This document shows positions 5,445 through 24,135 of a stretch of DNA of 64,000 nt, one piece after another. Both the position numbers and the translations under genes were made by a program. Location: positions 4,241,671 to 4,305,670 of the forward strand of contig CAJSYZ010000002.1 of the NCBI GenBank assembly GCA_910574455.1, in the 5' to 3' direction. The notes beneath the pieces were generated by a model that was not told the origin of the DNA, did no database searches, and saw nothing but the letters and a program-made list of their open reading frames with translations. Within the stretch, counting starts at the first letter, position 1. Every line of letters starts with the position of its first letter. The stretch comes from Trichaptum fuscoviolaceum. Lineage: Eukaryota; Basidiomycota; Agaricomycetes; Hymenochaetales; Trichaptaceae.

Positions 5445-6597
5445 ATGTCCAGCTTAGACCCGGCTCTCAAAGTTCTTCTGGATGATTCCTTCACAGGATC
5501 CAACGTGGCTTGCATTCTCTACGGTTCGAAACTTCAATAATTTGCTTGAGAAAACATAACTTCTGACTTAGAGCTCTTCCATTAGGTGCTTATTTGATTA
5601 TTGCACTCTCTAATATCTATCTGCTGTACAACAAGGGGTCGCGTTTTCTCCTAGCCTACACAGCTGTATTGGTATGCATCACCACGGTGTACATGGGCGT
5701 AGCAGTGAACTATGCGCAAGTCCTGATTGTGGACGATCCAACAAGTCCCGACCTCTTATCGGTCTGGCCTCAAGTTGTGGTTGACTCGGCATACACCGTC
5801 AACAATTGGCTCACTGACGGATACCTGGTAAATGACAATCATTTCGTTCATGCAATCCACTGTGCGCTCAACCCACTCTCGGAATAGATCTATCGCTGTT
5901 ATGTGATTTGGTGCGGGGCGTATCACAGCCTCATCCTTCTCCTGCCCATCGCTGTCTACCTGGGATCGATGGGGTGCTCGATAGCCCTCCTGGTATTTAC
6001 CGCAAATCCAGGCGCATCGTACAGCACACACATTGTCCAGGTGTTCGGAACAGCGACGTGGTCACTATCGCTTAGTCTGAATGTCATTGTGACGCTACTC
6101 ATCTCCGGTCGGCTCATCTACTATCGCACTCGATCCCGCAAAGTCCTTGGTACCAGCCACGGAAGAGTATACACAACTATTCTTGCGATTACGGTGGAGA
6201 GTGCCGCGCTATACGCAATCTTCGAATTAATCGTCCTTGCCACCTTCCTTAAGAACAGCGCCACCGAAAACGTCTTCTTCCCTATGCTTGGGAACGTTCA
6301 AGTAAGACTGAATTTCATCCATCCTATCTTGAAGCATCTCTGATAAAGCCTTGTTACCAGGTTATCGCGCCCAATCTCATCATATTCCGTATTGCGAACG
6401 GCATTTCTTTCACCTCTGAGATCACTCATCCTACCGAATCCACGAACATCAAGTTCGCAAGTCGCAAACCAACCATGCTACCTTCCAGGGATGAATCACA
6501 CACTCAGATTGGAACGGGATATTCGCAGCCCAGCACATCGGAAAAGAAACGTACAATTTCATCTTCATCACAGGAGAACTCCATTCAGATAGTGTAG
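5445..6597 (+). CDS. Polytopic (about seven-TM) membrane protein, copy 1
   Basis: Exons 5445-5523, 5586-5827, 5888-6301 and 6361-6597 give 323 residues. The start MSSLDPALKVLLDDSFTG precedes several hydrophobic segments such as AYLIIALSNIYLLY, AYTAVLVCITTVYMGVAVNY, LILLLPIAVYLGSMGCSIALL and IVTLLISGRLIYY. A serine-rich cytosolic tail follows. The architecture matches the many receptor-like integral membrane proteins of Agaricomycetes; ligand and function are unknown. It lies tail to tail with the intact UstYa oxidase gene. A second intact copy at 16960-18115 encodes an almost identical protein although many third codon positions differ. Confidence 0.8.
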
Positions 6598-6758
6598 TTA
6601 AATGTCCTCGTTTCTTGGGAGGTTTGATATTGTCTCTTGCTTTGTTATGTCTTCTTTCTTATGACTCGTTGTAATTGCAATTTCAGTAATGCAAGTGATA
6701 TATAATTAAATCCTCTAGAGAAAAGTAGAAAGGAGCAACGTAAACAAGAGAGGCATGG

Positions 6759-7398
6759 TCAATAGCTGGCTGCATCCGTTTTATTTTTGCCCTTCGTCTC
6801 GTATTCAACAAGGTTCCTCTGCATTTCCGCATACACGGCAGACCAGTCCCGGCACACGCGAGCGACGTCCGATTTACCCTCGGGCTCGAGTTGTGTATCT
6901 GCAGAACACAGTATTAGTTCCCGCACGTAGTTTGCGCAGTGCTCGATATGTTTGATATTGCCACTCCCGATCGGCTTGACGAATATCGAATGACGCATCC
7001 TGTCGAGGCAATGGAGCGTATGCAGCATGGTGACCGCGAATGTACGGTAGTGTGGTCCAAGGTGGACCACACCGCGTCCTACGGAGGGGGGGAGGAGGGC
7101 CTCCCATTCTTCATCGGCCTCGGTTCCGTTCAGCCCATAGTGGACAGACTGTTCGGAGATAAGGATGACCTTCTCATCCAAGCCTGGGACATCCAGTCTT
7201 GCAGGAAAGTCGTCATTGATGTAGGCTAACAACGTGTTAGCGAAAATATTATGGATTTGCGAATTCAGCGTTCGGCTCACAGTATTGCCTGGTCGATACT
7301 GCTGTTGACCTCCGCAGTGTGAGAGCCAAGTAGATATTGAGAAGCCCTAAGAGGGCTACAGAAAGTTTGACAATGAAAAGGCTGCGCGAAGAGACCAT
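6759..7398 (-). CDS. UstYa-family (DUF3328) oxidase, canonical motifs
   Basis: Exons 7281-7398 and 6759-7225 give 194 residues. The N-terminus has one membrane anchor (about residues 8-27, FIVKLSVALLGLLNIYLALT), then YSYINDD and the body. Both family signature motifs are present: HTLHC at about residues 108-112 and HIEHC at about 132-136, followed by ANYVRELILC. In characterised pathways (ustiloxin, phomopsin, asperipin, cyclochlorotine) UstYa proteins are metal-dependent oxidases in the secretory route that cyclise or hydroxylate peptide cores. All elements expected for activity are visible, so this is the best candidate modifying enzyme for the small peptides encoded from 9.4 kb onward. A degraded copy lies at about 18310-18860. 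Confidence 0.85.
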
Positions 7399-9374
7399 TC
7401 TAGTCGTACTAAGCCTGCATAGTAAACACAGGTTAAAGCCAGATTCAGTTCCTGGTGTACATGAGTGTACTCACCAGAACTTTGCTGGGTATCATAGTTA
7501 ATAATATCAGCCGGTATCGCCTTCTACATGTACAGGTTTCCGTGAGATACCCGGATTCGCCATGCCGTCCAACAGAGCATGCGCTGCATGAGAAACATCA
7601 TCTCCTCGAATGATGATAAAAGTGCGACTCTCTTCTTCTGCCCGGCCTACATCAAAGCATCCACATAGTACCGCACAGAGAGACCCTTGATCTTAATACA
7701 CCCGAGGACAATCTTGAGCTGTGCTCCACTTATTAGTCTTCTTGATGATCAGAGAATCCAGCGCGCGCCCATGACCATTCAAAATGGAAGATACGTGCTA
7801 ACAATGTGCCAGCAAAGCGTAACAATGAGGTGTAGTGTTTCAAACACTGTGTTTGCATCATTCTCCAAAGGTGCTCGGTCGTCGGAGGCAAACCCCAAAA
7901 TCAACGGTCGAACATATCCAGGCTGACGGAAGATGCATCGTGCGTCAATTGGCGCTCGCCGCTCGCTCGCTCGGACACGGCGTGGTAAAGCAATACAGAC
8001 ATAGGAGCTATAGATTTTGATGGGAATTCGCAGTAACAACGTTCTTGATCAGATCAATGGGAAGGAGAGCTTCGTCGTTGAGTCTCGACCAGTGCGACAA
8101 CTTGAACTTGACCGTGAGAAACGTTGTTCTCCGCACGCACTGCTTTGTTGAACTTGAACCACTGGCATGGCCACGGCAACTTGTTCATCTACCTCTCTTT
8201 CTACACCCGAAAAATTGAAGTTAAACAAGAAGTCTTGATCAAGGAGGTCTACGCAAGGTACCCCCTAACTGGAACGAACGCACGCAATTACCGTATCTAT
8301 CCAAGCTTCTTCTGAGTACGCTTGATTGAACTCAGCACCCATTCTCACTATAAACCGTTATGATCATGATAACCAGGAGCTTCGATACAGAAATAACAAC
8401 TCAGTAAAATACGGTCAGGCTATACCTTCCTGTGCTCCTAGCCTATGATACCTTATGGTCAGTTCATACTACTTCATTCTTGTAAAAGGGTACTTGCCAC
8501 GGTCCTGACGACTTTCTCATCTATACCAGACGCCCTCAGCCCCCAGTCTGCGATCCACCCGGAGTAGTGGAGACTATATACTTCACCCCAGCAATACTTC
8601 TCCATTATGAGAACTCTCAGGCCAGCCGGACATCCGCATTCTTGCAACTGGGGATTGGGATACTCATGACATCCCCTCTCCCAACAAAATGCTTGATCTC
8701 TCACACTCACCCATCTGTGTACACAGGAAGAAAGCTCTGCTGTTGGAGGCGAAAAATGACAGAGAGGCTGAGATTCCCAAGGGTGCCTGGACTGCCGAAC
8801 CGTGAAAACTGCAAAGCCTCAAGTTAATCATTGGTTACGCTCATCGAAATTATTTGATTCCTTATCTAGTCGATTCGCATACACGACTGGCTGCTTCTCC
8901 TGATTGTCCTATGGGCTTCTGCTTCGCCGACCTTCTTCCTTAATGATTGTTCTTATCCCGTTGGAAGAACGCCACGATGCCTTAAGGCTCCGCTTTGTCT
9001 TCTATCTGATGAGTAAGGTGACAGTCCTTGAAGCATGTTAAGCGTCCCACCAACTCGACCGAGAGCACGCGGTCCATTCGTCGTGTGCACGGACCGATCT
9101 TACACCCACAATCATGGGTCTATTCTTTTAGCCTTCGAGTCATTGCTTCCGAGTAATTCATCTCAGGAAGAAAATGCAGACATTGGGAACGTCTGGTCGC
9201 ATGAAGAAGTCAAAGCTTTCCAATGTGCCGGTGATTTGACCTATTCTTGAGCAGGAAAACTTTCAGGTTTCCGTGGTAATGGGTTGGTGGGATAAGCGAG
9301 GTTCACTGGTATTTAGATGACGCCTAAGACATTAGGCCTGCTATAACGTTTAGCACCGACATATTTCTCTCGCC
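7399..9374. other. Non-coding stretch with duplicated blocks
   Basis: No convincing gene. The segment at about 7700-7960 is related to segments at about 11460-11690 and 19020-19230. The part from about 8480 to 9300 is related in patches to about 12050-12480 upstream of the third peptide gene, including a shared agagcacgcggtcc/aaagcacgcggtac block. The last 300 bases probably form the promoter of the peptide gene at 9375. Confidence 0.45.
9271..9282 (+). promoter_or_regulatory. Conserved CCGTGG(A/T)AAT element upstream of peptide gene 1
   Basis: CCGTGGTAATGG lies about 104 bp before the ATG at 9375. Close matches occur before three other peptide genes: CCGTGGAAAT at 12467, CGTGGAAATGG at 14001 and CCGTGGAAATG at 23658, at 116-138 bp from their start codons. 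It may be a shared regulatory site or simply retained sequence from duplication. Confidence 0.4.
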
Positions 9375-9615
9375 ATGATCGCTAAGCTCATTGCTGCTTG
9401 GACTGCCTGCGCGTTACTGTTATTGAACGGAGTTGCGTTTGCACGTCCTCTAGGTTAGTTCAATTCTTTGCAATGCTCAAAAATCCTGCAAAACATGCCA
9501 ACCTTTCAATTTAGGCAGCTCCGTTGAACCAGCAGTCCAGACAGATGCCGCCGCTACTCCGGTCGTTTCACCGCTCGATGTGTTCTTCGCCGCTTACGAA
9601 GACGAAGAGGAATGA
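9375..9615 (+). CDS. Small secreted peptide precursor 1 (candidate RiPP precursor)
   Basis: Exons 9375-9453 and 9515-9615 give 59 residues. Exon 1 encodes a textbook signal peptide (MIAKLIAAWTACALLLLNG...ARPL). After a phase-1 intron, exon 2 encodes a short Ala/Val/Thr/Pro linker and then VFFAAYEDEEE at the C-terminus. The aromatic F-F-x-x-Y block and the acidic tail recur in four other genes of this window with the same intron position. No Lys-Arg Kex2 site is present. The stop TGA falls five bases before a conserved splice donor (9621) that three paralogues appear to use, so this copy ends one step earlier. The role as a modified-peptide precursor is inferred from architecture and the nearby UstYa genes. 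Confidence 0.75.
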
Positions 9616-11044
9616 TTTCAGTAAGAGATTCATAGCTTGGGCATATGCAACTCTCTAATATAAAAATACCAAAGTTTAACTTTAAACATCTCGTTCTCTG
9701 CCCCGCTAACAGTCCGTTGTTTCGCGACTTTAATGAAGCTAGGAGGACGCGCTTATATAGGCGATTCATCTGAGGACTTGTATTCTTTTGAAGTCGTTTT
9801 CCACTGCGCGAAACGATAGATTCTGTACAATGGAATGTATGTATAGATTTAATGAGCGTCTTGCCAGTTGTTTGTTTATCATCGCGGCTGAGGTGAGGAT
9901 CTTGAAAGTTGAATGTCCGCATCAACTTCAAGCTGAAGATGGAAACATACGAGATGTCAGTGATACCAAACGGTCATCGTAGCCTCTCTCTACCCAGCAA
10001 GAGCTTCCATTCACTGATATTTGTATGACAGCCACGGTAAGATGTGACCCACACTTCCCCCGGTCTCTCAATATTGCTGTATCAAAACGTGTAGAAGACA
10101 TTAGATCTTTAGAACTTTATCACGACTGCGGCTTAGTAAGAAAGGAACAGAAGCATTTCTTAATCTCCTCGTGGATTGTTAGGAAAGTAAATCTGGTATT
10201 GACATACATGATCAGACAGGTCTCAGGATAAGGAGGGCTTCTGGTTGATTCAACCGCTATTGTGTGTGTTATTTAATCTTTAAGTAAGTGGTCTTGTCAG
10301 ATTTGGATGCAAACGGTGACAGCAAATTGAAAGCACACTTCCTTCAGTAGACTCGACCCAGCCGCCACAATAGATGACTATACTTCTACTATAGCGGCTG
10401 GTTCACAAGTCTATTCCTACAGTACCACTGGCGGAAGGGTGTCTATCTGTACTGGCCCAAACAACCAGACAAACGAGTTGTTCCCCCTTCGCGTTCATAC
10501 GAAGATATTAATTTCTTTGGTCATCTCAACGTTATCCCAATGATAGATATCGCCAACCAAATCGAAGTAAGGGCAAAGGTGTCCGCGAATTTTAATGAAT
10601 CCAGTTTTCGGACATACTGGTAACTAAACTGTATGAAAGTTTTATCACGTCTATAACTTCACAAAGAAAAATGCGAACATATTTCGGTTCAACTCGGATG
10701 CACGACTACTCGCTTTCTTATCGTGGAGGTTGTCCAGTAGACTTTTGTTCCCCACTGATTGATATCCAACGACGGGTCCACCGCGGAGCTCTGGGATATC
10801 GCCGAACCTTCAGATGATGAATATAGTTGTCCAAGGACTACATACATGTAAATCAACAATTCTGGTAATTGGTTGTGATGCGAGTCCCGCTGTCATTCGA
10901 TTCGAAAGGGAGGAAATGTAGATAGACAGAAATATAACGGGCTCGTCGGTATATAAAGGCAGGTAGTACATACCACAGATCCTCATGATTCAAGTCCGCT
11001 AGACTTGAATAATAGCTTTCAGTAAAGACCCAAATCTTCAAGCT
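9616..11044. other. Non-coding stretch with a possible UstYa remnant
   Basis: Around 9810-9880 on the plus strand a short frame reads FCTMECMYRFNERLA, which resembles FCTMKCMHRTI in the decayed UstYa copy at 13 kb. That suggests another, almost erased, UstYa copy following peptide gene 1. From 10230 to 10850 there is no open frame of note. Confidence 0.35.
10950..10957 (+). promoter_or_regulatory. TATA box of peptide gene 2
   Basis: tatataaa lies 95 bp upstream of the ATG at 11045, a plausible distance for a fungal TATA element given a short 5' leader. Confidence 0.4.
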
Positions 11045-11307
11045 ATGATCGCCAAACTTGTTTTTTCATGGATACTAGTGTGCGCACTACTCCCAAAGGG
11101 AGGTGCACTTGCATTCCCAATAGCGCTAAGTCAGTTCAAATCTATAACAATTCAGGAACCATGGCCAACCCGGGCTAACCTCTCGAACCAGATAAAACCA
11201 TTCGTAGCGATGGTGTGTGTTGCAACTGTAGATCTGCCCAGGCCAACGGACTACCGATACCTGATTGTATTTTCTTCCGTGGATATGAACCGGACGACGA
11301 TGACTGA
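11045..11307 (+). CDS. Small secreted peptide precursor 2 (divergent linker with cysteines)
   Basis: Exons 11045-11129 and 11192-11307 give 66 residues. The acceptor at 11190-11191 follows a ctaac branch site and is the one I found that restores the frame; the resulting phase (1) matches the paralogues. The signal peptide is MIAKLVFSWILVCALL... The linker differs completely from the others and holds CCNC and one more Cys (PDC). The C-terminus is IFFRGYEPDDDD, so the F-F-x-x-Y-[EP] core and acidic tail are kept. As in peptide gene 1, the TGA lies five bases before a donor-like GTAAGTG. It was recovered only through splicing; the unspliced frame misses the core. Confidence 0.62.
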
Positions 11308-12466
11308 CCCCAGTAAGTGACGTGCAGTACATCACTCTTTAGTGGCTGAACAACATCCTGAAGCGCCTAAAAGCCACGTCTACCTTGCCAGTGTGGGATA
11401 TCTGCTTGAACCAAGATAGGAGGTTTTGTAAATTGAGCATAGGAGGGCTTGTTGATATGTAGGCAGTTCACCGGGGTTCGTGTAAATAGAACATGTACGC
11501 ACGGACCTAGCCCAAGACCACTGAGAATGGAGGATAGATGTGTTGACAAAGTGCAAGCACAGCGAGATAATAACGTGCAATGTTTGCATCCTCTTACTTC
11601 AGTGTGGAGTTGCCCGGTCGTCGGAGGTAAGTCCAGAATGAAATTCAGAGATGTCGGTATAGCCAAGGAACATGCCAGTGGCCCGTCACAGACGGTGGTC
11701 ATTGGCAATGCCAGTGGTAAACTTGAAGGAGACTGATGTGGAAAAAGAACTTGAAGACAGCAAGTTCAAAAAATTGCGTGGGAACAACTTCACTCAGTGT
11801 CGCATTTCATGATGGTTCGAACCAGTCACCACGGCCCCACCCTTAATTAACAACCTAATACTTAAGCTAAACAACCATGAAGACGCTCATTGATACTTCT
11901 TCTCCTAAGTAGGATTGTCTGAAATCGACATGCACGTCATAGACTATGGGCATGAAAACCGTGGCACCAGGAAAGTACGGACCGCGTAAGCCCATGTACT
12001 CTTGATCTGCGATACCATATGGTCAACCTTATTCCATTATTCCATTCCAGCTTTTGCCAACGGTCTTAGCAGCTCTCTCTTGTTTTCTCTACTCCAGATG
12101 CCCATTGGTACTGTCCTGTGATCCAGAGTGGTAGGTATTGCTTATTATACCACGGGACCTCTATACACAGCCCAGCACTTCTCAGGCAAGCATAACAAAG
12201 CTATAAGGGGTCGTTGGGTCTTCTATCTCATGGATGTGGCGGGCGCTGCGCTCGAGACGTACAATCCCACCAACTGGGCGGAAAGCACGCGGTACATACA
12301 TCGTATGTGCTAATCGGACTTACGGCTTATTCCTGTACCCTCCGAGTCACACCTTCAGAACTGTCCTTCTCCGGAGGATTTTGGGAGTGTCTGACCGCAT
12401 CAAGAATGCAAAGTTATATAACGTCCTAATGAGCCGACCTATTCTTGAACAGAAGCTTGCAGGTAT
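11308..12466. other. Non-coding stretch between peptide genes 2 and 3
   Basis: It contains the second of three related blocks (about 11460-11690; see 7.7 and 19.0 kb). From about 12050 it holds sequence related to the upstream region of peptide gene 1. No supported gene. Confidence 0.4.
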
Positions 12467-12480
12467 CCGTGGAAATAGGA
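12467..12480 (+). promoter_or_regulatory. Conserved CCGTGGAAAT element upstream of peptide gene 3
   Basis: CCGTGGAAATAGG lies 117 bp before the ATG. The preceding ctattcttga(g/a)cag block is also shared with the upstream region of peptide gene 1 at 9241. Confidence 0.4.
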
Positions 12481-12583
12481 ATCTGATAGTAGTCTATGGG
12501 TATTTAGATACGGGTACCTCGCATACGGTCTTGGGCTGCTGTACCTGTGCCGCAAATTTCAGTAACGACACACTTCTCCAACT

Positions 12584-12893
12584 ATGATCGCCAAGCTTGT
12601 CGCTTCATGGACTGTTTGTGCATTACTTCTCTTCAACGGAAGTGCATTTGCGCGTCCACTAGGTCAGTGCTAGTCGAGTATCAAGTCAAAATATTCGTGC
12701 TATTAATCCTTTCAAACTACATAGTCAATTCTGTTGAGCGAGCAGAGCAGGCAGATGCCGCTGCCAGTGCTCCCACTGTCTCGCCGCTCGCAGTGTTCTT
12801 TGCCGCTTACGAAGACGATGTGGATGATGCCAGTGAGAGAGACTCATAGCTTGTGTATATGCAATTGCCTAACTCAACAACTTCGAAGTCTAA
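12584..12893 (+). CDS. Small secreted peptide precursor 3
   Basis: Exons 12584-12662, 12725-12832 and a tiny third exon 12889-12893 give 63 residues. The signal peptide MIAKLVASWTVCALLLFNG is followed by an Ala-rich linker and SPLAVFFAAYEDDVDD. With the third exon the protein ends DDAI. If that intron is retained it ends DDASERDS with a stop at 12847-12849. The branch site gcctaact and the acceptor cttcgaag support splicing. The core is the same as in peptide gene 1 except for the acidic tail. A decayed UstYa copy follows at about 12960-13190. Confidence 0.72.
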
Positions 12894-12959
12894 TATCAGT
12901 GCATCCCGCTGTGCCGCAATATCTGACACATGTTTTGCGCTTTGAAGTCAGGACTCAAG

Positions 12960-13190
12960 GTCATCGAATGTCATGTAGTTTTACAGCTGGTTTACCACTG
13001 TGCATTTGTATGCGATACAATGGATTTTGTACAATGAAATGTATGCATAGAACCATTTTGGTGCAAACGATTGATGGCTGGCACGGGTGCTCGTATTATG
13101 CAGATTCTTGACGGATGTAAACTCGAGGATGTGCTTGATGCGAACCTCAATGAAACCCACGCATACCCACACGATAACTAGGACTCAGGA
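12960..13190 (+). pseudogene. Decayed UstYa oxidase
   Basis: Compared with the intact gene at 22336-22960, this segment keeps recognisable pieces: a TMKCMHR stretch in place of the first HxxHC region, then HGC, and a block reading LEDVLDANLNETHAYPH in one frame (intact copy: LEDVISADLSVNHAYPH). Frameshifts and stops separate the pieces and the 5' exon is missing. Downstream homology to 22960-23330 continues without interruption, showing that this is a duplicate that lost its coding function. Confidence 0.6.
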
Positions 13191-13296
13191 GTATGCCGAC
13201 ACACGAGACTTCAAGGCAGATCGCAGAGTAGTGTACTTCCTATTACCCTATCACCTCTTCCTGCTTCTTCGTCACCCTCGTCTTCCCAAATACTTT

Positions 13297-13584
13297 TCTG
13301 AACGGTTTCCCCACAACATTACGAAGTATTGCATTGACCTGAGCAAAAATTTGAAGAAGCATTATTACGAATAGTAAGGAAGCAAGAAGCAAAGTTCGAG
13401 GCTGTCTGGAATTTTTGAAGATATCCAGGAGAGAGAATCATCTGAACGGTTTCCCCACAACATTACGAAGTATTGCATTGACCTGAGCAAAAATTTGAAG
13501 AAGCATTATTACGAATAGTAAGGAAGCAAGAAGCAAAGTTCGAGGCTGTCTGGAATTTTTGAAGATATCCAGGAGAGAGAATCA
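13297..13584. repeat. Perfect 144-bp tandem duplication
   Basis: The segment 13297-13440 is repeated base for base at 13441-13584 (unit tctgaacggtttcccc ... gagagaatca). A diverged single copy of the same sequence lies downstream of the UstYa gene at about 23035-23190. The perfect identity suggests a very recent event or an assembly artefact. Confidence 0.9.
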
Positions 13585-14000
13585 CAAACACTCGTTTCAG
13601 TCAGTGATTCAACGCAAGCGACGTCGCATAAGAGTTCTCTTCTAGTCAACTAGGACACACGTCTGTGCTTCTAATAGTCATGAAGACAACTGCTTGGTCA
13701 CCATACTTCTCCACTGATTGATGTTTGCCCAGATCATAGAACGCAAAGCCTTATTTGGGCCCTGAGGGTCGCTGGACCTGAATCCGGCGATCGTCAAAAG
13801 CACCGATCGCTGTCATTGGTAATTCAATCCATGAAATTGGCGTCTTTTCTGTTCACTGAGGGGAACTGTTCTGCGTTTGATCAGGAAAACTTCAAGTTGC
13901 TGCATGAAAGAGATGAGCAGTGTTAATCCACGGCTGAGAACTTGACTTGTCTGCCAGTGCTTCGCTCTCCACCTGCATCTTCAGTAGGCTTCCGGGCGTA

Positions 14001-14010
14001 CGTGGAAATG
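14001..14010 (+). promoter_or_regulatory. Conserved CGTGGAAATG element upstream of peptide gene 4
   Basis: It lies 137 bp before the ATG at 14138. The preceding cagtaggct is also present before the element of peptide gene 5 at about 23640. Confidence 0.4.
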
Positions 14011-14137
14011 GATAGAAATAGGAACACACTGAGTTGGTTCTATAACACTTAAGCCCGGTCCCATCCTCACTGGGAGGATACCAGTTTCACTATCCTTGAG
14101 TAGATCTCAGTGCCGGCCAATAATCTCAGCTACTGCT

Positions 14138-14636
14138 ATGATAGCTAAACCCGTCGCTTTCTGGTCCGTCTGCGTATTGCTTCTTCTGAAAGGAGGAGCA
14201 AGCGCTGTTCCACTTGGTCAGTGTATTCTCGAAAAGAGCGAGTGAACTGGCTCACCTTTCAGAAGCAGATGATACGGTTGCATCAACAGTGGCGACATCG
14301 TCATTTGCACCAGCAAAATTAACATCGTCATTTGGGTCGACAGCGGCGACATCATCCTTTGGATCAGCAAGGGCGACATCAACATCCTCCTTTGCGTCAA
14401 CGAAGACGATATCTCCATCAACAAAGGCAACGCTGTCATCATCCTTTGCGTCGACGGGGGCGTCATCATCCTTCGTATCAACAGCGTCGTCTTTTACTTC
14501 TATTAGTACACTTTCAATATTCTACGCCGCCTATGAAGACGATGAGGATGACTTTGGTAAGGCAAATTTCCCGAAACTGACTAACATGACTCGCCTACTC
14601 ATCGGGCTGAACGATCTATCATCTATCATAGTCTGA
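14138..14636 (+). CDS. Small secreted peptide precursor 4 with serine-rich repeat linker
   Basis: Exons 14138-14216, 14263-14556 and 14632-14636 give 125 residues. The signal peptide is MIAKPVAFWSVCVLLLLKGG. The linker is expanded to about 80 residues of imperfect TSSF(G/A)S(T/A)-type repeats, then STLSIFYAAYEDDEDDF with a final V. The last intron (75 bp) is a multiple of three; if retained, the frame stays open to the same stop and adds 25 residues. The core is F-Y-A-A-Y-E, so the second aromatic residue is Tyr instead of Phe. Ser/Thr-rich repeats would be expected to be O-mannosylated in the secretory pathway (inference). Confidence 0.72.
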
Positions 14637-15530
14637 GCCTGATTGGAAGGACCCAATTCCGTGTCAGATGTACCTCGAGGGACTTCAGCGTCGATCCTAG
14701 AAATTTGTACATATGTAGGGTTGTCATAGTGGACATTCGGACTTGCTTGCTTTGATTGAAGGCGTAGTGCAAGGCAAAGGCTGCGTGTATACGTCACTTG
14801 AGTTCTGAATCCTACAGATTTCCTCTGACCGTAATCACATAATCGGGCCGAAGAGCAATGAGCAACGTCACGAGTGATATAACAGATCCATTGCAATTTG
14901 AGATGGTCGAACCTATGCTCCGTATCTTCAGCGCATATCGAAGCGTGAACGGGACTTGACATTTAGGTCCATATAAGAAACTGTAAGTATTGTTCTCGCG
15001 GAAAAGCATCGCATATTCACAGGTCTTCAGAGGACCTGAACAATCAGTTAGAAGACTGGCGCTCGAATCAAGTCATTCAGACATACCGTAAATTGTCAGA
15101 GCTATTACGAGTGATAAACACAACACCAGAAGGAGGGTGTTTGTTTTGATCCAGGCTTCTCTACTGCAGACTGCGTGGTAACTTTCATTCTCCCCTGATT
15201 GATAGCTGCAAAAGAGGTCAACGACGCCGGACTTCCTATCGATAAGATGCGATGTTGGACAAGAGACTCTTCACCAAGCTTAGGGTGCTCGTGGGGTCTG
15301 GAAATAAGTATGTGTTGTGTTTTTTGTGCATTCATTGCAATATAGCTTGGATCCTGAATATACGTTAAGATACGTATGTGATCTGCCTTATATGAAGTTA
15401 TGAAGCTGACACTATGCGGGTACCCATAAAATCGAAAGACAGCCTAGAAGAGAAGTGTGTGCACTTGCCTCAAGCTAGCCTCGATGTGAGTTATCTGTTC
15501 GAAACGGCCATTACACACCCGAGCGCCCCT
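14637..15530. other. Non-coding stretch
   Basis: About 14640-15000 shows scattered similarity to about 24350-24480 downstream of peptide gene 5 (for example acgtcacgagtgat), so it is the flank of the duplicated peptide block. I see no intact gene. Confidence 0.35.
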
Positions 15531-15534
15531 CTTC

Positions 15535-16400
15535 ACTCTGGAACAGTCAGAATCCTGTGCATCGCTGTGAGTTCAGACTTATCAAAAGATCGAGACTGTT
15601 TACCAAATCTGGGAGCCGCTCTGTCTTGAACGAAATCGAGCTTACAATCGGAACTACCGAAAGCGACTGCGTATAGTCTCGAATTGCTGTCGCATTCAGT
15701 GTACCTAATATCCTTCGCCTAGCTGGCTTCGTGTTCCAGGCGTACATTGTCGGCGGATCCAAAGGTATCTAAGTTGCTCGGTTCTTCCAGCTGCCAAACC
15801 TCCAGGGATTCGATTGGATCCTCTCCGCTATAACTTCTGTGCGGAGCAATCTGACCTCGAGTGGGAAACAACGAGCTATGACGCAGTTCTCCATACCAAA
15901 TCATCAGTAAACAACATGATAACCGTACGCTAAAACGCACAAGGAAATTAGCTCGATTATAGATGCATTCCCTGAATGCGTGCGCACCGTGTCATCTAAT
16001 AAGACCCTCCGTGTATTTGGCGATTTAGCATTCGCATTCCATGAATCAAGGATACCAAAATACTCCGGGAAATCATATCTCTTCAGAGGCCAGTTCGGAG
16101 AGGATGCGTTTCGAGTAAGCTGGTCGAAGCCGAGATATGTACTCGGTCTAAGAGTTGGAACAGGAGAGGTGCCCGGGAGTTGTACAAGTCGACGCTCAGC
16201 CAGGTCATATTATAGACGTGATTATGACTGCGATTATCGAGCCAAATAGCATCCAACTGTCGCCGCATGCTCTGCCTTTTCTGCTTGAAGGAAAGGTTCG
16301 GCTTCTCGGAAAGAGTGGAGGGTAAAGCACATCCATGTCTTCAGAGATGAAGTCCTCGTGAGGTGAGGTAGTTTTTGATGGCAAGCGTAAATAGCTCGTG
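15535..16400 (-). pseudogene. Broken copy 2 of the single-pass membrane protein at 3826-4761
   Basis: Alignment by eye with copy 1 shows at least four disabling changes: a one-base loss near 16170, just after NLTWLSVDLYNSR; a two-base loss near 15765, after LEVWQLEEPS; a deletion of about 40 bp near 15670, in the FEVACGSS region; and TGG changed to TGA in the last exon (about 15551). The intron positions are still visible. The neighbouring membrane-protein gene copy is intact. Confidence 0.7.
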
Positions 16401-16959
16401 GTCTGGTAGGAATCTAATACGTTGAATATAGGACATTATGGTGAACTTGAATAAAACTGATGGTAAACACGAATTCAGTCAGTGACGCTTGCCAGTGTTT
16501 TGGCTTCAACTTGCACTTCAAGTTGAAGTTCAGTCTCCGGCGGCGGCGCCCGAATTTCTGTAAAAGTTGGACCTCAAAACTTGAACGCGGTGCCTGTTCC
16601 TCGTGAATCTGAGAACAAACATCCATTACTGCTATATCTAGGATCAACCAAATAGCGTCAGCTGGCATGCATATCAAATACGAACCAAGCGTGTTGAAAT
16701 GTGGGCTAAATATTGCACGTCCTTCAAGCTTCTCTGTCTACATGCAACGTCTTCTACGCCGGGCACGACTGTCTCGTTTAGTTAGCTCTGTTGTGTTGTT
16801 CGCTATCTTGGAACGACACGTTGATTTCTGGGCTGCTTCTGTCCCGACCTGAACCTGACTCAAGCCGTTTATTAAAGAGAAGCTTTGAGCCATGGCCGCT
16901 AGTCGTTATCTGAGCTCCGAGTCTTGCTTGGCTAGAGGCTAGGAACTCGTCCTTCAGCA

Positions 16960-18115
16960 ATGTCCAGCTTGGATCCCACTCTCAGACTACTCCTGGATGA
17001 CTCCTTCACAGGATCCAACGTGGCTTGCATTCTCTACGGTTCGAAACTTCAATAGTTTGCTTGAGAAAACATAACTTCTGACTTAGAGCTCTTCCATTAG
17101 GTGCTTATCTGATTATTGCACTCTCTAACATCTATCTGCTGTACAACAAGGGGTCGCGCTTTCTCCTAGCTTACACAGCTGTATTGGTATGCATCACCAC
17201 CGTGTACATGGGCGTCGCAGTGAACTATGCGCAAGTGTTGATTGTGGACGATCCGACAAGTCCCGACCTGTTATCGGTCTGGCCTCAAGTCGTGGTTGAC
17301 TCGGCATACACGATCAACAACTGGCTCACTGATGGATACCTGGTAGAAAACCTCCTACTTCTTTTACGCAATTCACAGTGTACTTACCTCGCTCACTGAA
17401 TAGATCTATCGCTGTTATGTGATCTGGTGCGGGGCGTATCACAACCTCATCCTTCTCCTGCCCATTGCTGTCTACCTGGGATCGATGGGGTGCTCAATAG
17501 CCCTCCTGGTATTCACGGCAAACCCAGGCGCATCGTATAGCACACACATTGTCCAGGTATTTGGGACAGCGACGTGGTCGCTCTCACTGAGCCTGAACGT
17601 CATCGTAACGCTCCTCATTTCCGGCCGGCTCATCTACTATCGCACTCGATCACGCAAAGTCCTTGGTACCAGCCACGGAAGAGTATACACAACTATTCTT
17701 GCGATTACTGTTGAGAGCGCAGCGCTATACGCAATCTTCGAACTGATTGTTCTTACCACCTTCCTTAAGAACAGCGCCACCGAAAACGTCTTCTTCCCTA
17801 TGCTAGGGAACGTCCAAGTAAGACTGAATTCATCCATCCTATCTTGAAGCATATCTAACAAAGCCATGTTACCAGGTTATAGCGCCCAACCTCATCATTT
17901 TCCGTATTGCGAACGGCATTTCCGTCACGTCTGAAATCACTCATCCTACTGACTCCACAAACATCAAATTCGCGAGTCGAAAGCAAACTATACTACCCTC
18001 CACAGACGAATCACACACCCAGATTGGAACGGGTTATTCGCAACCCAGTTCCTCGGAGAAGAAACGCTCAATTTCATCTTCATCGCAAGACGACAGCCCC
18101 ACTCAAATGGTGTAG
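16960..18115 (+). CDS. Polytopic membrane protein, copy 2
   Basis: Exons 16960-17038, 17101-17342, 17404-17817 and 17876-18115 give 324 residues. The protein is nearly the same as copy 1 (5445-6597): over exon 3 only a couple of residues differ (for example YHSL to YHNL, VLATF to VLTTF), while many codons differ synonymously (ggaacagcgacgtggtcact against gggacagcgacgtggtcgct). All splice sites are conserved. This pattern indicates purifying selection on both copies, in contrast to the two decayed genes either side of this one. Function unknown. Confidence 0.8.
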
Positions 18116-18289
18116 CTAATTCCTCATTTTCTTCAGCGTTTGAGAATATTTTATTTTGCTTTATCCACGGCTATATATACTTGTGTAATTGGATTTCAAT
18201 GACAGAATTTGAGTCAAAGCAAAGCCTGTCTGAAAATGCGGAAAGGAGCAGATGAGCCAACAAAGGTACGCCTATAGCTATGACTCAAG

Positions 18290-18880
18290 TGTTGCATTTT
18301 TACGATTTGTTTCATAATTAACAAGGTTCCTCCACGTTTCTGCATACGCAGCAGTCCAGTCTTGACACATGCGAGCAACATGCGGAACGTCCTCAGGCTC
18401 GAGTTATGTGTTTGCAGAACACAGTATCAGTTCCCGCACGTAGTTTACGCGATGTACATATGATTCTGATATTGCCATTCCCGATCATTGGCTTCAAGTT
18501 GGAGAATGTCAATGAAATATGGTGACTGCGAAAGCACCATAATGAGGTCCAAGTTGGACCATACCGCGCCATACAGAGAGGGGAGGAGGAAAGACTTGCA
18601 TTCTTTTCGGCCTCAATTCCGTTTAACCCATACTGCACAGAAACCTGGACATCGACATCCGCGGGTCTTGCAGGAGCGCTGAACGATCAATCGATGTGTT
18701 AATTAACGAGATTTTCATCATTTAGCGGACTCAGCATTCGGTTCACAGTATTGCCTTGTCACTGCAATGATAGGGCTTCGTAGTATAAGAGCTGAATAAA
18801 TATTGAGAAACCCTAAGGGAGCTACAGAGAACTTGACATCGAAAAGGCTGCGCGAAGAGACACCGCGCCCAGGCCCCACG
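18290..18880 (-). pseudogene. Decayed copy 2 of the UstYa oxidase at 6759-7398
   Basis: The anchor region (FLNIYSALILRSP...TRQYCEP), QYGLNGIEA and the C-terminal DWTAAYAETWRNLVNYET can be recognised in different frames. The HTLHC motif region is deleted and frameshifts separate the rest. It occupies the same position relative to the membrane-protein copy as the intact gene does at 6759. Confidence 0.65.
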
Positions 18881-18899
18881 TACCTCAAGAGAACGATCA

Positions 18900-19465
18900 A
18901 CTTCCTCGACTGTTGATCTCAATGTGACACTCTTCTGCGCTGGCAGTGTCCGGATTTCAGAAAAGTATCCACACACGGCTGCATCACGCGAGGACAATCT
19001 AGAGCTGTGCTCCTCTTATTAGTCTTCTTGATGATCAGATATTGAGCGCGCGGACCTCGCCCGAAGCCGCTGAGAACGGAAGATAAATGTGTTGACAACG
19101 TGCCAGCAAAGCGAAACGGTGCATTGATAGTATCACCCACGTTCCAATTGAAGTTGCCCGGACCTCGGAGGTGAACCCAAGATTGAATTTAGGGATGACG
19201 GTGGAGCCGATGAATATGGACATTCGATTGCTGCAAAATACCTTGACGCTGCCTCACGAAGACGTAGCGAAGGAAACTTTCACAGGCAGCAAAGACAGAT
19301 GGTCACTGAAATGACATATCAAGAAATTATGCCCGAAGACAGAGGTCGAAAGAAGAGGTGTCCTGATAAGTACCCGTCTTTTCAAATCGCTCGTGAGACA
19401 GATAAAGTGACTTCTATAAGCTGCGATATTTTCAAGGTACACTTCCTCAGAACACCGTGGCGTGT
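18900..19465. other. Non-coding stretch with third copy of a repeated block
   Basis: About 19010-19230 matches about 7730-7900 and 11490-11690 (for example the shared ttgttgacaa.gtgc.agca core). No credible reading frame is conserved across the three. Confidence 0.4.
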
Positions 19466-21422
19466 TCACGACTTTCTCTCCAACTCCGCGGCGATGGCAG
19501 GGACAAGAAGCGTAACACGTCCATCACTTTGCTTGACCTTCAGCATGTTGGTCGCATATCCGTTTCCATACGCATATTGGTCGAGCCCAATCCAATTGAA
19601 CATGCATCCAGTGTTGGGTACGCTGACTGCAAGTCTATCAAGGGAATATTTCAGAACACTTTGGGGAGTTGGGATGGGTAAATAAACGTACCGAAGGTCG
19701 TGTCCCCCAGTAGATAGCAAAGAAGCTCTACGAGAGACGCCATCAGGTTGGATGGTCTTGAGTACATCTGTTCCGTTGATCACGTAGTTGGAGGCGAAAA
19801 GAGAGCCCTTATCGAGGGTAATGGTTACTTGTACAGATCCATCGCTTGATGCCCAGGATCCTCCAAGCAACTCACGAGTCTTCTGTTCTGCAATGCTATC
19901 AAAGGCAGGCTGGAAGTGCGAGAAGACAAGTTCGTTGAGAGGGATGGTTTGCATGCCCGGTGAAGTCGTCAGAATGACAACCCCAAATGCGCTGTCCGGA
20001 TTAATAGTGAAGACCGTATGATGTCCAATAAGTTCACCAACTACACGAGAATGCATCAGCAAATTTTCTACATCATTAGGTGAGAACTAATACGAACACT
20101 TAACGAATTGGCGTGAATACCTCCCGAATGAGTCCTTGACACGGAAGATCTCCCACATGGGCCCAACCTCTTGATAGTCGTCCCAGAATGAATGAAGCGG
20201 CTTCATCCATTCGCGTACGGTTGATGGACGTAAGAGACTTTCGGGGCGCCTGGGATCAATGAGGGTCTGCATAACTTTCACGAGGTCTGAAAGTGAGCTC
20301 ATTTGGCCACCCGCAGGATTTGTCGCATCCTCAAAGTCTAAATCCTGATCGAGATGAAAGATAAGCGACAATCAGGGTTGTTTGGCGAAGGTAATTGACT
20401 CACCGTCTCTACTGAAGCGACGGAAGATACCACTACTTTCCCTTTGTTTCCCTCAGAAACGACGAATGCACTATCGGTAAGACCAAGAGGCTCGAAGATA
20501 TCGCGTTTAACAAGGTCCGCGTGCGTCGACGGCGCTTTGCGTCCTTCTGCTGCTTTATTTGCAGCCACATTTGCGAGCCCGAGAAGAGAGAAGCCAGTGT
20601 TCGAGTAAATCGGGAACGTATACGGTGGTGCAACCAGAGGAAAGCCAGATATTCCTTCAAGGAATTCCTCATTTGTAGGGAATGGTAGTCCATTATACCA
20701 TGGCGGCCCCGAACCCGTCGTCGACTCCGGCCATGCACCCGCCGCAGGACCAGCGGGCCAGTCCCGCCCAAGCCCAGACATGTGGCTTGCTAATTGTCGT
20801 AGGGTGACAGGATCTTCATTTTGAGCAAATTTTAGCTTAGGGAAGAATTTCGTGACCTCATCGTCTCTGGATAGTCGATTAGAAACATTCAAGGTGATTT
20901 GACAACAACATACAGATTCAAGATCCCCCGATCTCGCAGCATATAGGTCTCCATAGTTGTGAAGAGCTTCGATATAGATGCAAGTCGATAGACAGTATGA
21001 CGATCGATAGTCCCTTGTTTACTTTCGTCCGTCTCATTTGCACGTTGAACGCCCCAGAAACCCTCGTAGACAGAGCCTTCCGCGGTAACAACAGCCACCG
21101 CTACACTGTCCAGACCACCCTCATTGAACCTTGCCGTCAAGGCCTCGTTCAGGTCATGAGCAGCCTTTCGGATTCTCGCATCCTCGTTGAAAAGGTCATG
21201 TTTGAACGTAAACTGTGGGAAGGGAGCGGTGCATTCGTGCTCCACCACACTGGACACGGACGGTCGCCCAATGAAGTTTCGCAGTTCAACATCGTAGCGA
21301 AGGAAAGCGACGCAAGCAGCAGTGGCTACAGAGAAAGTCCAGAGCAACCACTTGTGGTTATTTGAGGAGTTAATTGTCGGCGTCCTGTGCGTTAGAGGCG
21401 ACTCCTTCTCTCTCGACGACAT
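19466..21422 (-). CDS. Membrane-anchored beta-lactamase-fold serine hydrolase
   Basis: Exons 20914-21422, 20404-20866, 20098-20344 and 19466-20040 give 597 residues. The last intron uses a weak donor (gttcgt), the only one I found that keeps the frame and yields the expected GELIGHHTVF. An N-terminal anchor lies near residues 25-43. The class C beta-lactamase/penicillin-binding-protein signature is present: the SxxK motif in YRLASISKLFT and the Tyr-x-Asn motif in PIYSNTGFSLLG. Such fungal proteins are serine hydrolases or peptidases of mostly unknown substrate. It lies between two UstYa copies within the peptide cluster, so a part in peptide maturation is possible but unproven. Confidence 0.82.
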
Positions 21423-22335
21423 GGTTGGACACTTGACAGTCTGAAGCTTGTTGGGGGCAAAACAGGCTTGTAGACGAAAGGAGTAGGGCTTGAGGCAGAG
21501 TACCTCGGAGGAGAAAGAAAACAGCACATCACTGGCTTCTCTGGATTATGATGAGCGTGGGCCTCCGGTTGGACCATGGATGGAGAAGATGCGCCGCTTG
21601 AGCTTCCATATGCCAGTGGCCCACTGGTGCGTGGGAACTTGAATATTCTTCAGCTGGTTCGCAGGCTCACCAGAGTCACCATGATCAATCTCTCTTGCGA
21701 ACCACATGCTATCCTCATACCATCCTCAACAAAACGGATGACCGGGTAGCTTGGACCCACTAAAACTGCAACAAGTGTTTGTGAAACCCACATGGGTCTC
21801 TCAACTCCGAAGTACCGGGCACACCCAGGCTGGCATGCGAGCAATATCCTCGCACTTTGTGTTCGAGGGGCATCCATCATGATCACGCAAGCACACGGTC
21901 CCATCAATGCTATACACATCTATTAACCTTCTCGGCTTCCATGAGACTTCGATGAGCAAGCTTGATTAGCACTTACATCATTCTCACCATAACTCGTGTA
22001 CGTGCTTCGATCCGAGAATAATATTCCCTTACTAGCAAAATGATGCCGCACTTTGTTATCTATACTCCCGGCTGGCGGTGCCAGGTAAGAAGAGAAACCG
22101 CACTACTTTTGTGTAACGGAACCTTTTGCCTTTCTCATCTTCATCGATCCTGATTTGCACTTGATTTATAGGGGATACTTGTTTCATGAGAACATTCAAT
22201 GCATCTACACAGCTCAGCTTCACTCTATGAACTTCCTGGGGTTCTGAATGATGCGCCCGTACTACTGCTAGCTTGACTCGTCAAAGCAGAAACTTCAGAA
22301 ACATTTGCTTCTTCTTTCTCAGCTCTTCGTCGCCA
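21423..22335. other. Intergenic between hydrolase and UstYa gene
   Basis: This is about 900 bp holding the divergent promoters of the hydrolase (minus) and the UstYa gene (plus). An 89-codon open frame at 21650-21919 on the minus strand has no recognisable domain and no splice support. Confidence 0.35.
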
Positions 22336-22960
22336 ATGATGTTCTACAACTCCTTATCTCCCAGCGGAGAGCTACGGCTCTTCACGATAGCTGCACTTTG
22401 TCTTGCTATGTGGTCAATAATCTTAAGTGCCTTGCATAGAGCATCGAGCTTAAACATGTCGAACGTACTTGAAGCAGGTAATTTGTGCTTCACCCGTCAT
22501 TTAGGCCAGTCGTTTACGTGTTTTTTTCGCAGAAGGTCCAGTCACCGACATTTACCCATCCCACTACCCCATATCCCTCAAGGACGTCATCCTAATCCCA
22601 GAAGATCCATCGCACTATCGAATTTATAATGGCTACGACGAAAGCGAATGGCAAGCACACTTTCCACCTGGAGGAGGCAGCGTCCGCCTTGGCCTGAACA
22701 ATCAGACTTTCGAATTGACAATGTTCCACGAGCTTCGCTGCTTGGGGGCTATCCGCCATGCAATGGCTGCGCAGTCCGCCGGTAGCGCCGATAATGCGGA
22801 ATTCCTTCATGGATGCTTTAATTATCTGCGCGAGCTCATACTGTGTCGAGCAGATGTTACGCTCGAGGATGTGATTAGTGCGGACCTTAGCGTAAACCAC
22901 GCATACCCACACATATGCCGAGACTGGACAGCTCTATACGCTGCTTTGAGTGAAGAATAG
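22336..22960 (+). CDS. UstYa-family oxidase with divergent motifs
   Basis: Exons 22336-22477 and 22533-22960 give 189 residues. An anchor (FTIAALCLAMWSIILSAL) is followed by YPSHYPISL and the family body ending CRDWTALYAALSEE. The first signature reads HELRC (residues about 113-117) and the second FLHGC (about 138-142), so the His before each Cys of HxxHC is replaced (Arg, Gly). HELRC variants occur in other basidiomycete members as I recall them; the second is more unusual. The frame is fully open, so the protein is probably made, but catalysis may be altered. Peptide gene 5 follows 830 bp downstream on the same strand. Confidence 0.78.
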
Positions 22961-23790
22961 TGCAAGTTCCATCACCCTATCCCCTTTCCTCGTTTCTACG
23001 CTCCCCCCCCCCCCCCCTTCGACCTTCCACAAAGTTTTTAATCCGGTTTCTTTCAGGATAAAAGAATGTTGCATTGTCGTATTTTCTAATAATATCACAA
23101 TACACAGAAGCATCAGTACGAATAACCAAGAAGCAAGGAGACGTTTGAGGCTCTTTGGATCCCAAGGCTACCAGAGAGAGAATCACAAAGTCTCATTTCA
23201 ATCAGTGATTCCAGGCATACGAAGACGTATTTGAGTCCCTTTCCAGTCGACTTGGACACACGACTATGCTTCTTAATCATGTAGAATGCTGCGTAGCCGA
23301 AAGACTTCTCCACTGATTGATGTCTACAATGACTGCAGAACGCCACCTGTGTATTCGGACCGCTGATCTGATGGCTTTGGCGGCCGTTGGCTTTGGAGTG
23401 AGATGAATAGTAAGGTTGGGAGCACGCGGTACGGATGTATGTTTTCACCGAGCGCGACCGGTCATACAATCAAAGTTATGGGTGTTGTTCCTGATCACTA
23501 CGAGTCATACCATCAAACCTCGAGTCATGGGGAGAATGCATTTATTCGGCGAGTATTGCCGCATCAAGGCGCTGTGCAGTGCAGTGTAAATCCACCACGG
23601 AGAATCCGGCATGTCTGTTCTTTTCGCTAACTGTCTCTCCAGTAGGCTATCAGGCGACCGTGGAAATGAGAGGTAGATGGAAATGGGAGAACGCTGGGAT
23701 ACGCCGGGAATTGTGGTACTTAAGACCAGGTGCTGGCAAACTCCAGTCCTCGATTTCACCACATTTCGGTACAAACCCATAATTCCTGCT
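22961..23790. other. Intergenic between UstYa gene and peptide gene 5
   Basis: It includes a run of 15 cytosines at 23003-23017 and sequence closely related to 13200-13750 (cttctccactgattgatgt in both). The conserved CCGTGGAAATG element lies at 23658-23668. Confidence 0.5.
23658..23668 (+). promoter_or_regulatory. Conserved CCGTGGAAATG element upstream of peptide gene 5
   Basis: It lies 133 bp before the ATG at 23791 and is preceded by agtaggct, as in peptide gene 4. Confidence 0.4.
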
Positions 23791-24135
23791 ATGATTGCCA
23801 GACTCGTCGCATCGTGGGCTGTCTGCGCACTGCTTCTCCTAAGCGGTGGCGCATTTGCACTTCCACTAGGTCAGTTGGATTGGCAGATTAGTACGAGCAA
23901 CTCAGTATGCTAACCTTTCTGAAACACATAGACAACTCTGTTACGCCAGCAGAGGCGACGCCGGACGTCGCTCCTATATCTGATATCGCGCCCTTCTTCG
24001 CCAAATACGAAGACGACGATGGTGATCTTAGTGAGCAAAGAATCACGTAACATATCATTCACTGCTCATCGTACACGTCGATGTATTATAGTCTAACAGG
24101 AGAGGCTCACTTTCGTTGTCACAGTATCGGTCTGA
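23791..24135 (+). CDS. Small secreted peptide precursor 5
   Basis: Exons 23791-23869, 23932-24030 and 24125-24135 give 62 residues. The signal peptide is MIARLVASWAVCALLLLSGG. A short linker (DNSVTPAEATPDVAP) is followed by IAPFFAKYEDDDGDL and a spliced end ISV. If the second intron is retained the end is SEQRIT. The first intron is at the same phase and place as in the other four genes. The core F-F-A-K-Y-E carries Lys at the fourth position. It lies downstream of the divergent UstYa gene in the same orientation, the arrangement also seen in decayed form at 12.96-14.6 kb. Confidence 0.74.

What the first reader, a model, noticed from the sequence alone, without database searches (positions are those of the whole stretch)
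9375..24135. Five-member family of tiny secreted precursors with an F-[FY]-x-x-Y-[EP] core and acidic tail, beside UstYa oxidases: candidate undescribed RiPP system
Seen: five plus-strand genes (9375, 11045, 12584, 14138, 23791) with the same signal-peptide exon (MIAK/MIAR), a phase-1 intron at the same place, hypervariable linkers, and conserved C-terminal cores FFAAYED, FFRGYEP, FFAAYED, FYAAYED, FFAKYED followed by Asp/Glu runs. The core is far better conserved than the linker. Known: dikaritins (ustiloxin, phomopsin, asperipin) are made from secretory precursors whose aromatic cores are oxidatively cyclised by UstYa/DUF3328 proteins. Inference: these genes encode precursors of cross-linked peptides modified by the UstYa at 6759-7398 and perhaps 22336-22960. 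They differ from dikaritins by having one core per precursor at the C-terminus and no Lys-Arg processing sites.
Basis: partly seen in the sequence, partly recalled or inferred. Interest (0 to 1): 0.92.

Follow-up and report, generated by a model that had tools for sequence, protein, structure and literature searches.

The report
Single-core secreted peptides beside UstYa oxidases
A probable bracket-fungus genome holds a family of tiny predicted secreted peptides, each with one aromatic core and without repeated cores or Lys-Arg cutting sites, next to UstYa-type oxidase genes that would cross-link that core, which is a likely new layout for making cyclic peptides in mushrooms.

Summary
Five plus-strand genes share a signal-like exon, a phase-1 intron and one core, F-[FY]-x-x-Y-E-[DP]. 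The core pattern matches ten times in the 59-Mb genome; five are these genes, the rest scattered (reversed-pattern control: five). Nine of nine database relatives that include the core read FFxxYED. A sixth, divergent candidate with the same three-exon plan (TFFYYAEEL) lies 21 kb upstream of the first, outside the window.

Four of the nine UstYa genes found in the genome lie here, in two kinds: A, with both HxxHC motifs, and B, with both degenerate (a clade shared with Sanghuangporus). Both B genes and a B relic are each followed by a precursor on the same strand; one such unit was duplicated as a block.

Best reading: precursors of UstYa-modified peptides, probably Tyr-O to Phe-C-beta ethers as in asperipin-2a, with one core each and no dibasic Kex2 sites. 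By the usual definition not a dikaritin (tested, not met), but it would work like one. Expression, cross-linking and release are untested.

The parts
9375..9615 (+). Precursor P1: exon 1 9375-9453, intron 9454-9514, exon 2 to stop at 9613-9615; core FFAAYED at 9583; possible 3'UTR intron from 9621
11045..11307 (+). Precursor P2 (divergent, Cys-rich linker): intron 11130-11191; core FFRGYEP at 11272; GTAAGT donor after the stop at 11313
12584..12893 (+). Precursor P3: intron 1 12663-12724; core FFAAYED at 12796; putative intron 2 12833-12888 (AAG acceptor), ends ...DDVDDAI
13122..13199 (+). Relic of the 3' end of a B-type UstYa (one stop inside), upstream of P4
14138..14636 (+). Precursor P4 (long Ser/Thr-rich repetitive linker): intron 1 14217-14262 (several acceptors stay open); core FYAAYED at 14520; putative intron 2 14557-14631, ends ...DDEDDFV
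23791..24096 (+). Precursor P5: intron 1 23870-23931; core FFAKYED at 23994; putative intron 2 24031-24091, ends ...DDGDLI
6762..7346 (-). A-type UstYa, both HxxHC motifs present (HTLHC, HIEHC); conserved part only, the N-terminal exon was not modelled
22336..22960 (+). B-type UstYa, intron 22478-22532 in the favoured model; motifs degenerate (HELRC, FLHGC)
18290..18812 (-). Decayed A-type UstYa copy (stops in frame)
3839..7823 (.). Duplicated block, copy 2: But2-like gene (-), membrane gene (+), A-type UstYa (-)
15524..19117 (.). Duplicated block, copy 3: But2-gene fragment, membrane gene (DUF6534-like below cut-off), decayed UstYa; 78-81% identical to copy 2 in three pieces
19469..21545 (-). 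Serine beta-lactamase-like gene (PF00144 in two of its three frames); role in the locus unknown

Best explanation
A locus of about 36 kb holds at least six small predicted genes, each coding for a short peptide with a signal-like start and one aromatic core, among four UstYa-family genes, and these peptides are likely precursors whose core would be cross-linked by the UstYa oxidases in the secretory pathway. Proposed order of events, all inferred: the signal peptide sends the precursor into the ER; an A-type UstYa (with the double HxxHC, the proposed dicopper site), perhaps paired with a B-type UstYa that lost these histidines and helps to hold the substrate, oxidises the F-[FY]-x-x-Y core, most likely to an ether from the Tyr oxygen to the beta carbon of a Phe or Tyr 3 or 4 residues before it; the acidic residues beside the core act as recognition tag or follower; proteases other than dibasic Kex2 cleavage trim the linker and tail. 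Shown: gene layout, core conservation, UstYa types, co-duplication. Inferred: splicing, secretion, oxidation, pairing, release.
For: The core occurs five times within 15 kb and otherwise at the level of the reversed control. Four of nine UstYa matches are in this locus; 0.4% of the genome lies within 20 kb of one. Both B-type genes and a B-type relic are each followed on the same strand by a precursor, after 413, 830 and 938 nt. The UstYa end, spacer and signal exon before P4 match those before P5 in the same order (13122-13172, 13499-13724, 14133-14222 against 22862-22912, 23106-23323, 23786-23875). A scan for a signal exon, phase-1 intron and aromatic/acidic end, not using the core motif, gave 4 hits in 86 kb around UstYa genes (P2, P3, P5, P6) and none in 143,115 control bases. 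P6 has two phase-1 introns and a stop right after intron 2. Nine of nine relatives with the core region read FFxxYED. Signal exons of P1, P3, P4, P5: dN 0.11-0.29; dS 1.1-2.0 in four pairs, saturated in two. UstYs use a dicopper site and make the Tyr-O to Phe-C-beta ether of asperipin-2a (PMC12186524, passages); its core is FYYTGY (PMC6514808, passages).
Against: No transcript, peptide or mass data. The locus is a duplication array, so nearness may be hitchhiking and the UstYa genes are not independent. P1, P2 and P3 have no B-type UstYa directly upstream. P2's core DNA is no better kept than its intron, and over seven codons dN is not clearly below dS for P1-P5 (0.16 and 0.17). The database search picks candidates by shared five-residue words, which favours proteins that keep the core. 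Close relatives keep the unspliced-looking tails (SEQRIT in P0001, P0010, P0011; SKRDS in P0002), so intron 2 is not certain. Proteins named Sanghuangporus include B-type UstYa but no precursor at E up to 10, though tiny spliced genes are easily unannotated. The two other degenerate UstYa genes (L002, L004) showed no candidate in a crude scan. The scan missed P1 and P4. AlphaFold models were poor (mean pLDDT 47.5 and 46.1). Signal peptides were judged by hydropathy and A-x-A only.
Confidence: 0.55

Rival explanations
1. Ordinary small secreted proteins or signalling peptides that are never oxidised; the core is a receptor- or target-binding motif and the UstYa genes are unrelated neighbours.
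For: Fast-evolving secreted peptides with one short conserved motif are common (general knowledge). The neighbourhood also holds duplicated membrane and But2-like genes. A 2022 Agaricomycete study detected linear, minimally modified peptides from repeat precursors (PMC9769878, abstract and passages).
Against: Both B-type UstYa genes and the relic are followed by a precursor, and one such unit was duplicated as a block. A new candidate lies beside the upstream UstYa pair.
Confidence: 0.27
2. UstYa-modified, but the modification is not a cross-link (hydroxylation, dehydrogenation or halogenation of the core).
For: DUF3328 proteins are said to hydroxylate and chlorinate in the cyclochlorotine cluster (PMC12048977, passages); a paper titled for dehydroamino acids made by UstYa proteins is in the reference list of PMC12186524.
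Against: The core keeps two aromatic residues at one end and a Tyr at the other in the five window genes and in nine of nine relatives with that region, a layout that suits a ring.
Confidence: 0.12
3. Tyrosine-modified (for example sulfated) signalling peptides: Tyr followed by acidic residues resembles sulfation sites.
For: YEDDD context; a sulfation site was predicted in a Trichoderma candidate precursor with predicted core KKAHPYEEP (PMC7099791, passages).
Against: Relative P0003 keeps FFAAYED but not the acidic run. I know of no fungal tyrosylprotein sulfotransferase (recalled, not searched).
Confidence: 0.04

Closest known systems
Dikaritins (ustiloxin, phomopsin, asperipin-2a)
   Same: Predicted secretory precursor, Tyr-containing core, UstYa-family genes at the locus; asperipin core FYYTGY resembles FYAAY and P6's FFYY; acidic residues beside the core (EDYXI in ustiloxin and phomopsin repeats, PMC6339444)
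   Different: One core per precursor, no dibasic sites, acidic residues mainly after the core, half of the locus's UstYa genes lack the HxxHC motifs, probably a basidiomycete host
Kex2-processed repeat proteins of Agaricomycetes
   Same: Signal-bearing peptide precursors in mushrooms; 103 of 1680 (6.1%) basidiomycete ones lie near DUF3328 genes (PMC7329392, passages)
   Different: Those are repeated units cut at dibasic sites; these have one core and no dibasic site
Single-core possibility raised for lichen UstY clusters (PMC12048977)
   Same: UstY genes without a repeat precursor; the authors name a single core peptide as one option (passages)
   Different: There no precursor with a conserved core was described in the passages seen; here a family with one is identified
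Cycloamanides (MSDIN) and borosins
   Same: Basidiomycete RiPPs (PMC9233826, passages)
   Different: Processed in the cytoplasm by S9 oligopeptidases (PMC9769878, passages); these have a signal-like start, no MSDIN leader and no fused domain

Membership tests
Dikaritin | UstYa/DUF3328 gene(s) beside the precursor gene | tested here: met
   PF11807 over cut-off at 6762-7346, 22505-22957 and two upstream genes
Dikaritin | N-terminal ER signal peptide on the precursor | tested here: met
   Hydropathy peak 2.27-2.79 and an A-x-A site in 6 of 6 sequences with exon 1 (P1-P5, P0003); P6 passed the scan's hydropathy filter; no dedicated predictor was available
Dikaritin | Multiple repeated cores | tested here: not met
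   One core in each of P1-P6
Dikaritin | Cores flanked by dibasic Kex2 sites | tested here: not met
   No KR, RR, KK or RK in the six sequences checked; P4's linker was shortened there; its full linker and P6 have none by eye
Dikaritin | Two HxxHC motifs in the UstY protein | tested here: inconclusive
   Met by the locus's A-type genes (L005, L008), not met by its B-type genes (L007, L009)
Dikaritin | Oxidative side-chain cross-link in the product | not testable with these tools
   Needs LC-MS/MS
Kex2-processed repeat protein | Repeated peptide units separated by dibasic sites | tested here: not met
   the repeat scan did flag repeat frames at C5 near another UstYa (L030)
Cycloamanide (MSDIN) | MSDIN leader and no signal peptide | tested here: not met
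   P1-P5 start MIA[KR] with a hydrophobic stretch, P6 starts MTSTR; prolyl oligopeptidase was not searched
Borosin | Core fused to an N-methyltransferase | tested here: not met
   No Pfam family in 5 of 5 precursors scanned (P1, P2, P3, P5, P6); P4 was not scanned

The most novel reading that the evidence does not exclude
A mushroom class of UstYa peptides with one C-terminal F-[FY]-x-x-Y core per precursor, installed by a pair of UstYa proteins of which only one keeps the copper site while the other, B-type, partner is a dedicated substrate holder inherited together with its precursor; this would give mushroom UstYa genes a single-core substrate family that repeat-based mining cannot see.
Probability: 0.35. 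Interest if true: 0.87.

Novelty: new variant of a known kind. Interest (0 to 1): 0.72.

Why it matters
Mushrooms carry UstYa genes (16 in Pleurotus, 6 of them developmentally expressed; PMC8893723, passages), yet only 6.1% of basidiomycete repeat precursors lie near a DUF3328 gene (PMC7329392, passages), so what these oxidases act on looks open. A precursor family with one core and no dibasic sites offers a direct, testable answer and a search rule (signal exon, phase-1 intron, aromatic core with acidic residues, phase-1 intron, early stop, beside UstYa) that repeat-based pipelines would be expected to miss. The loss of both HxxHC motifs in a UstYa clade that is still kept is a clean target for testing which residues hold copper and whether UstYa proteins work as pairs.

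Tried and rejected
Chance motif: rejected. The same core at the other UstYa loci: in 12 stretches of 10 kb around them a broader motif scan gave one spurious match (L028), and a looser gene scan near L002 and L004 (parts of L033 and L024) gave nothing. Reading the longer C-termini (SERDS, SEQRIT, FGKANF...) as real: disfavoured because of the fixed second donor and because relative P0006 diverges three codons past it; three P5-like relatives and P0002 do keep such tails. Structure: two AlphaFold jobs gave poor models, so no fold search was run. Solved structures: no UstYa relative by sequence (best E 0.48). Pfam (5 precursors) and NCBIfam (4 precursors): nothing meaningful. Core strings in the paper library: 0 papers. 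Searches for a basidiomycete single-core UstYa precursor in print (one search was swamped by words beginning with the term): none seen in the listings and the passages read; a 2025 paper on a copper-dependent DUF3328 cyclase and a 2025 copper halogenase paper are not held and are known here only through the text or reference list of PMC12186524.
Full report
What is there. The window is C2:4241671-4305670 of a 59-Mb assembly in 12 contigs. The only named relatives of one of its genes are three Sanghuangporus proteins, so the host is probably a Hymenochaetales fungus (the order of Sanghuangporus is recalled). Five plus-strand genes start at 9375, 11045, 12584, 14138 and 23791. Each has a first exon of 79 or 85 nt coding for a signal-like stretch with an A-x-A site followed by X-Pro, a phase-1 intron with a GTTAGT or GTCAGT donor, a variable linker and one core: FFAAYED, FFRGYEP, FFAAYED, FYAAYED, FFAKYED. 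Several acceptors keep P1, P3, P4 and P5 open; I favour the first pyrimidine-rich one; P2 has only one.

A second donor (GTGAGA, GTAAGG, GTGAGC) lies exactly 37 nt after the core start in P3, P4 and P5, in phase 1. In P4 and P5 a TAG acceptor (intron 75 and 61 nt) gives one more codon and a stop (...DDEDDFV*...DDGDLI*); P3 would do the same with an AAG acceptor (...DDVDDAI*). Other acceptors are possible. In P1 and P2 the stop comes just before a GTAAG donor, so that intron would lie in the 3'UTR. The relative P0006 resembles P3 through this donor and diverges three codons on; against this, P0002 (P3-like) and P0001, P0010 and P0011 (P5-like) keep the read-through tail.

Not chance. The core pattern in DNA matches ten times in the genome: five are these genes, five are scattered; the reversed pattern matches five times. 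A protein search with P3 at E up to 10 finds 8 stretches, all in the array. Among seven sequences the core has mean column entropy 0.50, the linker 1.46, the tail 1.54; 95 of 100,000 random draws of seven post-signal columns are as low (one linker had been shortened by me, one homologue spliced and one trimmed). Between P1, P3, P4 and P5 the core DNA is 76-95% identical, intron 1 34-52%; in the four pairs with P2 the core is 52-57% and the intron 34-58%, no clear difference.

Relatives. Two profile searches of 5.8 billion proteins gave 13 proteins in all; one (P0007) is the window's own frame. Of the 13, nine include the core region and all nine read FFxxYED (FFAAYED four, FFAKYED three, FFLAYED two); the other four are exon-1 readings. 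Candidates are recruited by shared five-residue words, which favours cores that are kept, and two of the relatives were in the second profile. P0003 is probably from another species: similar signal exon and FFAAYED, but its tail is FEPGTQLQ, so the acidic run is not essential. None carries an organism name, and their neighbourhood is not known.

UstYa genes. The genome search found nine PF11807 matches (a lower bound); four are in this locus. Five of nine keep two HxxHC motifs (L001, L003, L005, L006, L008); four have both degenerate (L002, L004, L007, L009). In this locus L008 (window 6762-7346) and L005 (upstream) are A-type; L007 (window 22336-22960) and L009 (upstream) are B-type (HELRC, then HGC or QEC). 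Of ten database relatives of the window's B-type gene, nine share the B pattern (eight HELRC, P0019 HELQC; no His before the second Cys), including the three Sanghuangporus ones; P0022 is canonical. So the loss is shared across species and kept. The upstream A and B genes are divergent neighbours, and so are L004 (degenerate) and L003 (canonical) on C8. HxxHC is taken in print as the likely active site (PMC12048977, passages) and UstYs as dicopper enzymes (PMC12186524, passages). That B-type proteins are non-catalytic partners is my inference.

Link between UstYa and precursors. The B-type gene at 22336-22960 is followed by P5 on the same strand after 830 nt. A relic at 13122-13199, matching the 3' end of the B-type gene (too short to show HELRC), is followed by P4 after 938 nt. 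The two stretches match in order: UstYa end (51 nt, 82%), spacer (226 nt, 74%), signal exon (90 nt, 74%). Downstream of the third B-type copy (L021, outside the window) I noticed a signal-like frame by eye in the ORF list; 413 nt on, same strand, is a sixth candidate, P6: signal exon, phase-1 intron of 47 nt, MPHEPATSLPSGTSNINEEDTFFYYAEEL, then a phase-1 GTGAGT donor whose 57-nt intron would end in an immediate stop (other acceptors are open too). A scan that does not use the core motif, written before I had read P6's second exon, found P6, P2 and P5 in 86 kb around UstYa genes; with a lower hydropathy limit and a phase-1 filter it found P2, P3, P5 and P6 there and nothing in 143,115 control bases (controls were the rest of the window, 10-kb flanks of UstYa loci and five unrelated loci; it missed P1 and P4).

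The rest of the locus. A block of But2-like gene, membrane gene and A-type UstYa occurs three times: upstream inverted, at 3839-7823, and at 15524-19117 with a decayed UstYa. The membrane gene is DUF6534-like below cut-off in one of the two copies scanned. A serine beta-lactamase-like gene at 19469-21545 is the only peptidase-like gene among the 20 ORFs given to Pfam, which are not all of the locus.

How it probably works. Asperipin-2a is made from FYYTGY by ethers between Tyr side chains and beta carbons (PMC6514808, passages), a Tyr-O to Phe-C-beta link according to PMC12186524. F-[FY]-x-x-Y has the same ingredients. Ustiloxin and phomopsin repeats read EDYXI (PMC6339444, passages), so acidic residues beside the core recur. 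Here they mostly follow it; in P6 they precede and follow. In the passages I read, dikaritin precursors are repeat proteins cut at dibasic sites (PMC9769878, PMC9233826); these are not. How the core is released is open; the X-Pro start is a dipeptidyl-peptidase-like signature (STE13 sites XP/XA) and monobasic Kex2 cleavage is suggested in the same paper.

What remains weak. No expression or product data; splice models rest on sequence; positional linkage in a duplicated array; poor structure models; no precursor among Sanghuangporus-named proteins or near the other degenerate UstYa genes. Several genome searches did not complete, so an exon-1 pattern search and family counts for DUF6534 and But2 are missing.

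Noticed in passing
L030 (C5:310001-320000) 1986-2689, minus: Frames with many EEDLGVSFKR and REDLGATFKR units, about 1.8 kb from an A-type UstYa (C5:314498): they look like a classical Kex2 repeat precursor beside UstYa in the same genome.
   Followed up: partly
L024 (C8:2306001-2316000) 2447-4078: Divergent UstYa pair, one canonical and one with both HxxHC motifs degenerate, like the pair upstream of the window; no precursor found nearby in a crude scan.
   Followed up: partly
window 13297-13584: Perfect 144-bp tandem duplication between P3 and P4.
   Followed up: no
window 9375, 11045, 12584, 14138, 23791; L021 8508: The predicted mature peptides start X-Pro (RP, FP, RP, VP, LP; LP in P0003; MP in P6 by eye), a dipeptidyl-peptidase-like start.
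   Followed up: no
window 11192-11271: P2's linker holds four Cys (CCNC...C), unlike the other members; possibly a different function.
   Followed up: no
P0018 and P0023 (database proteins): A B-type UstYa and a precursor both list a longest contig of 70,542 bases; perhaps the same contig in a related fungus.
   Followed up: no
L021 2-5383, minus: Open frame of 1,794 aa that looks by eye like a Helitron helicase, next to the cluster; mobile DNA may have helped the duplications.
   Followed up: no
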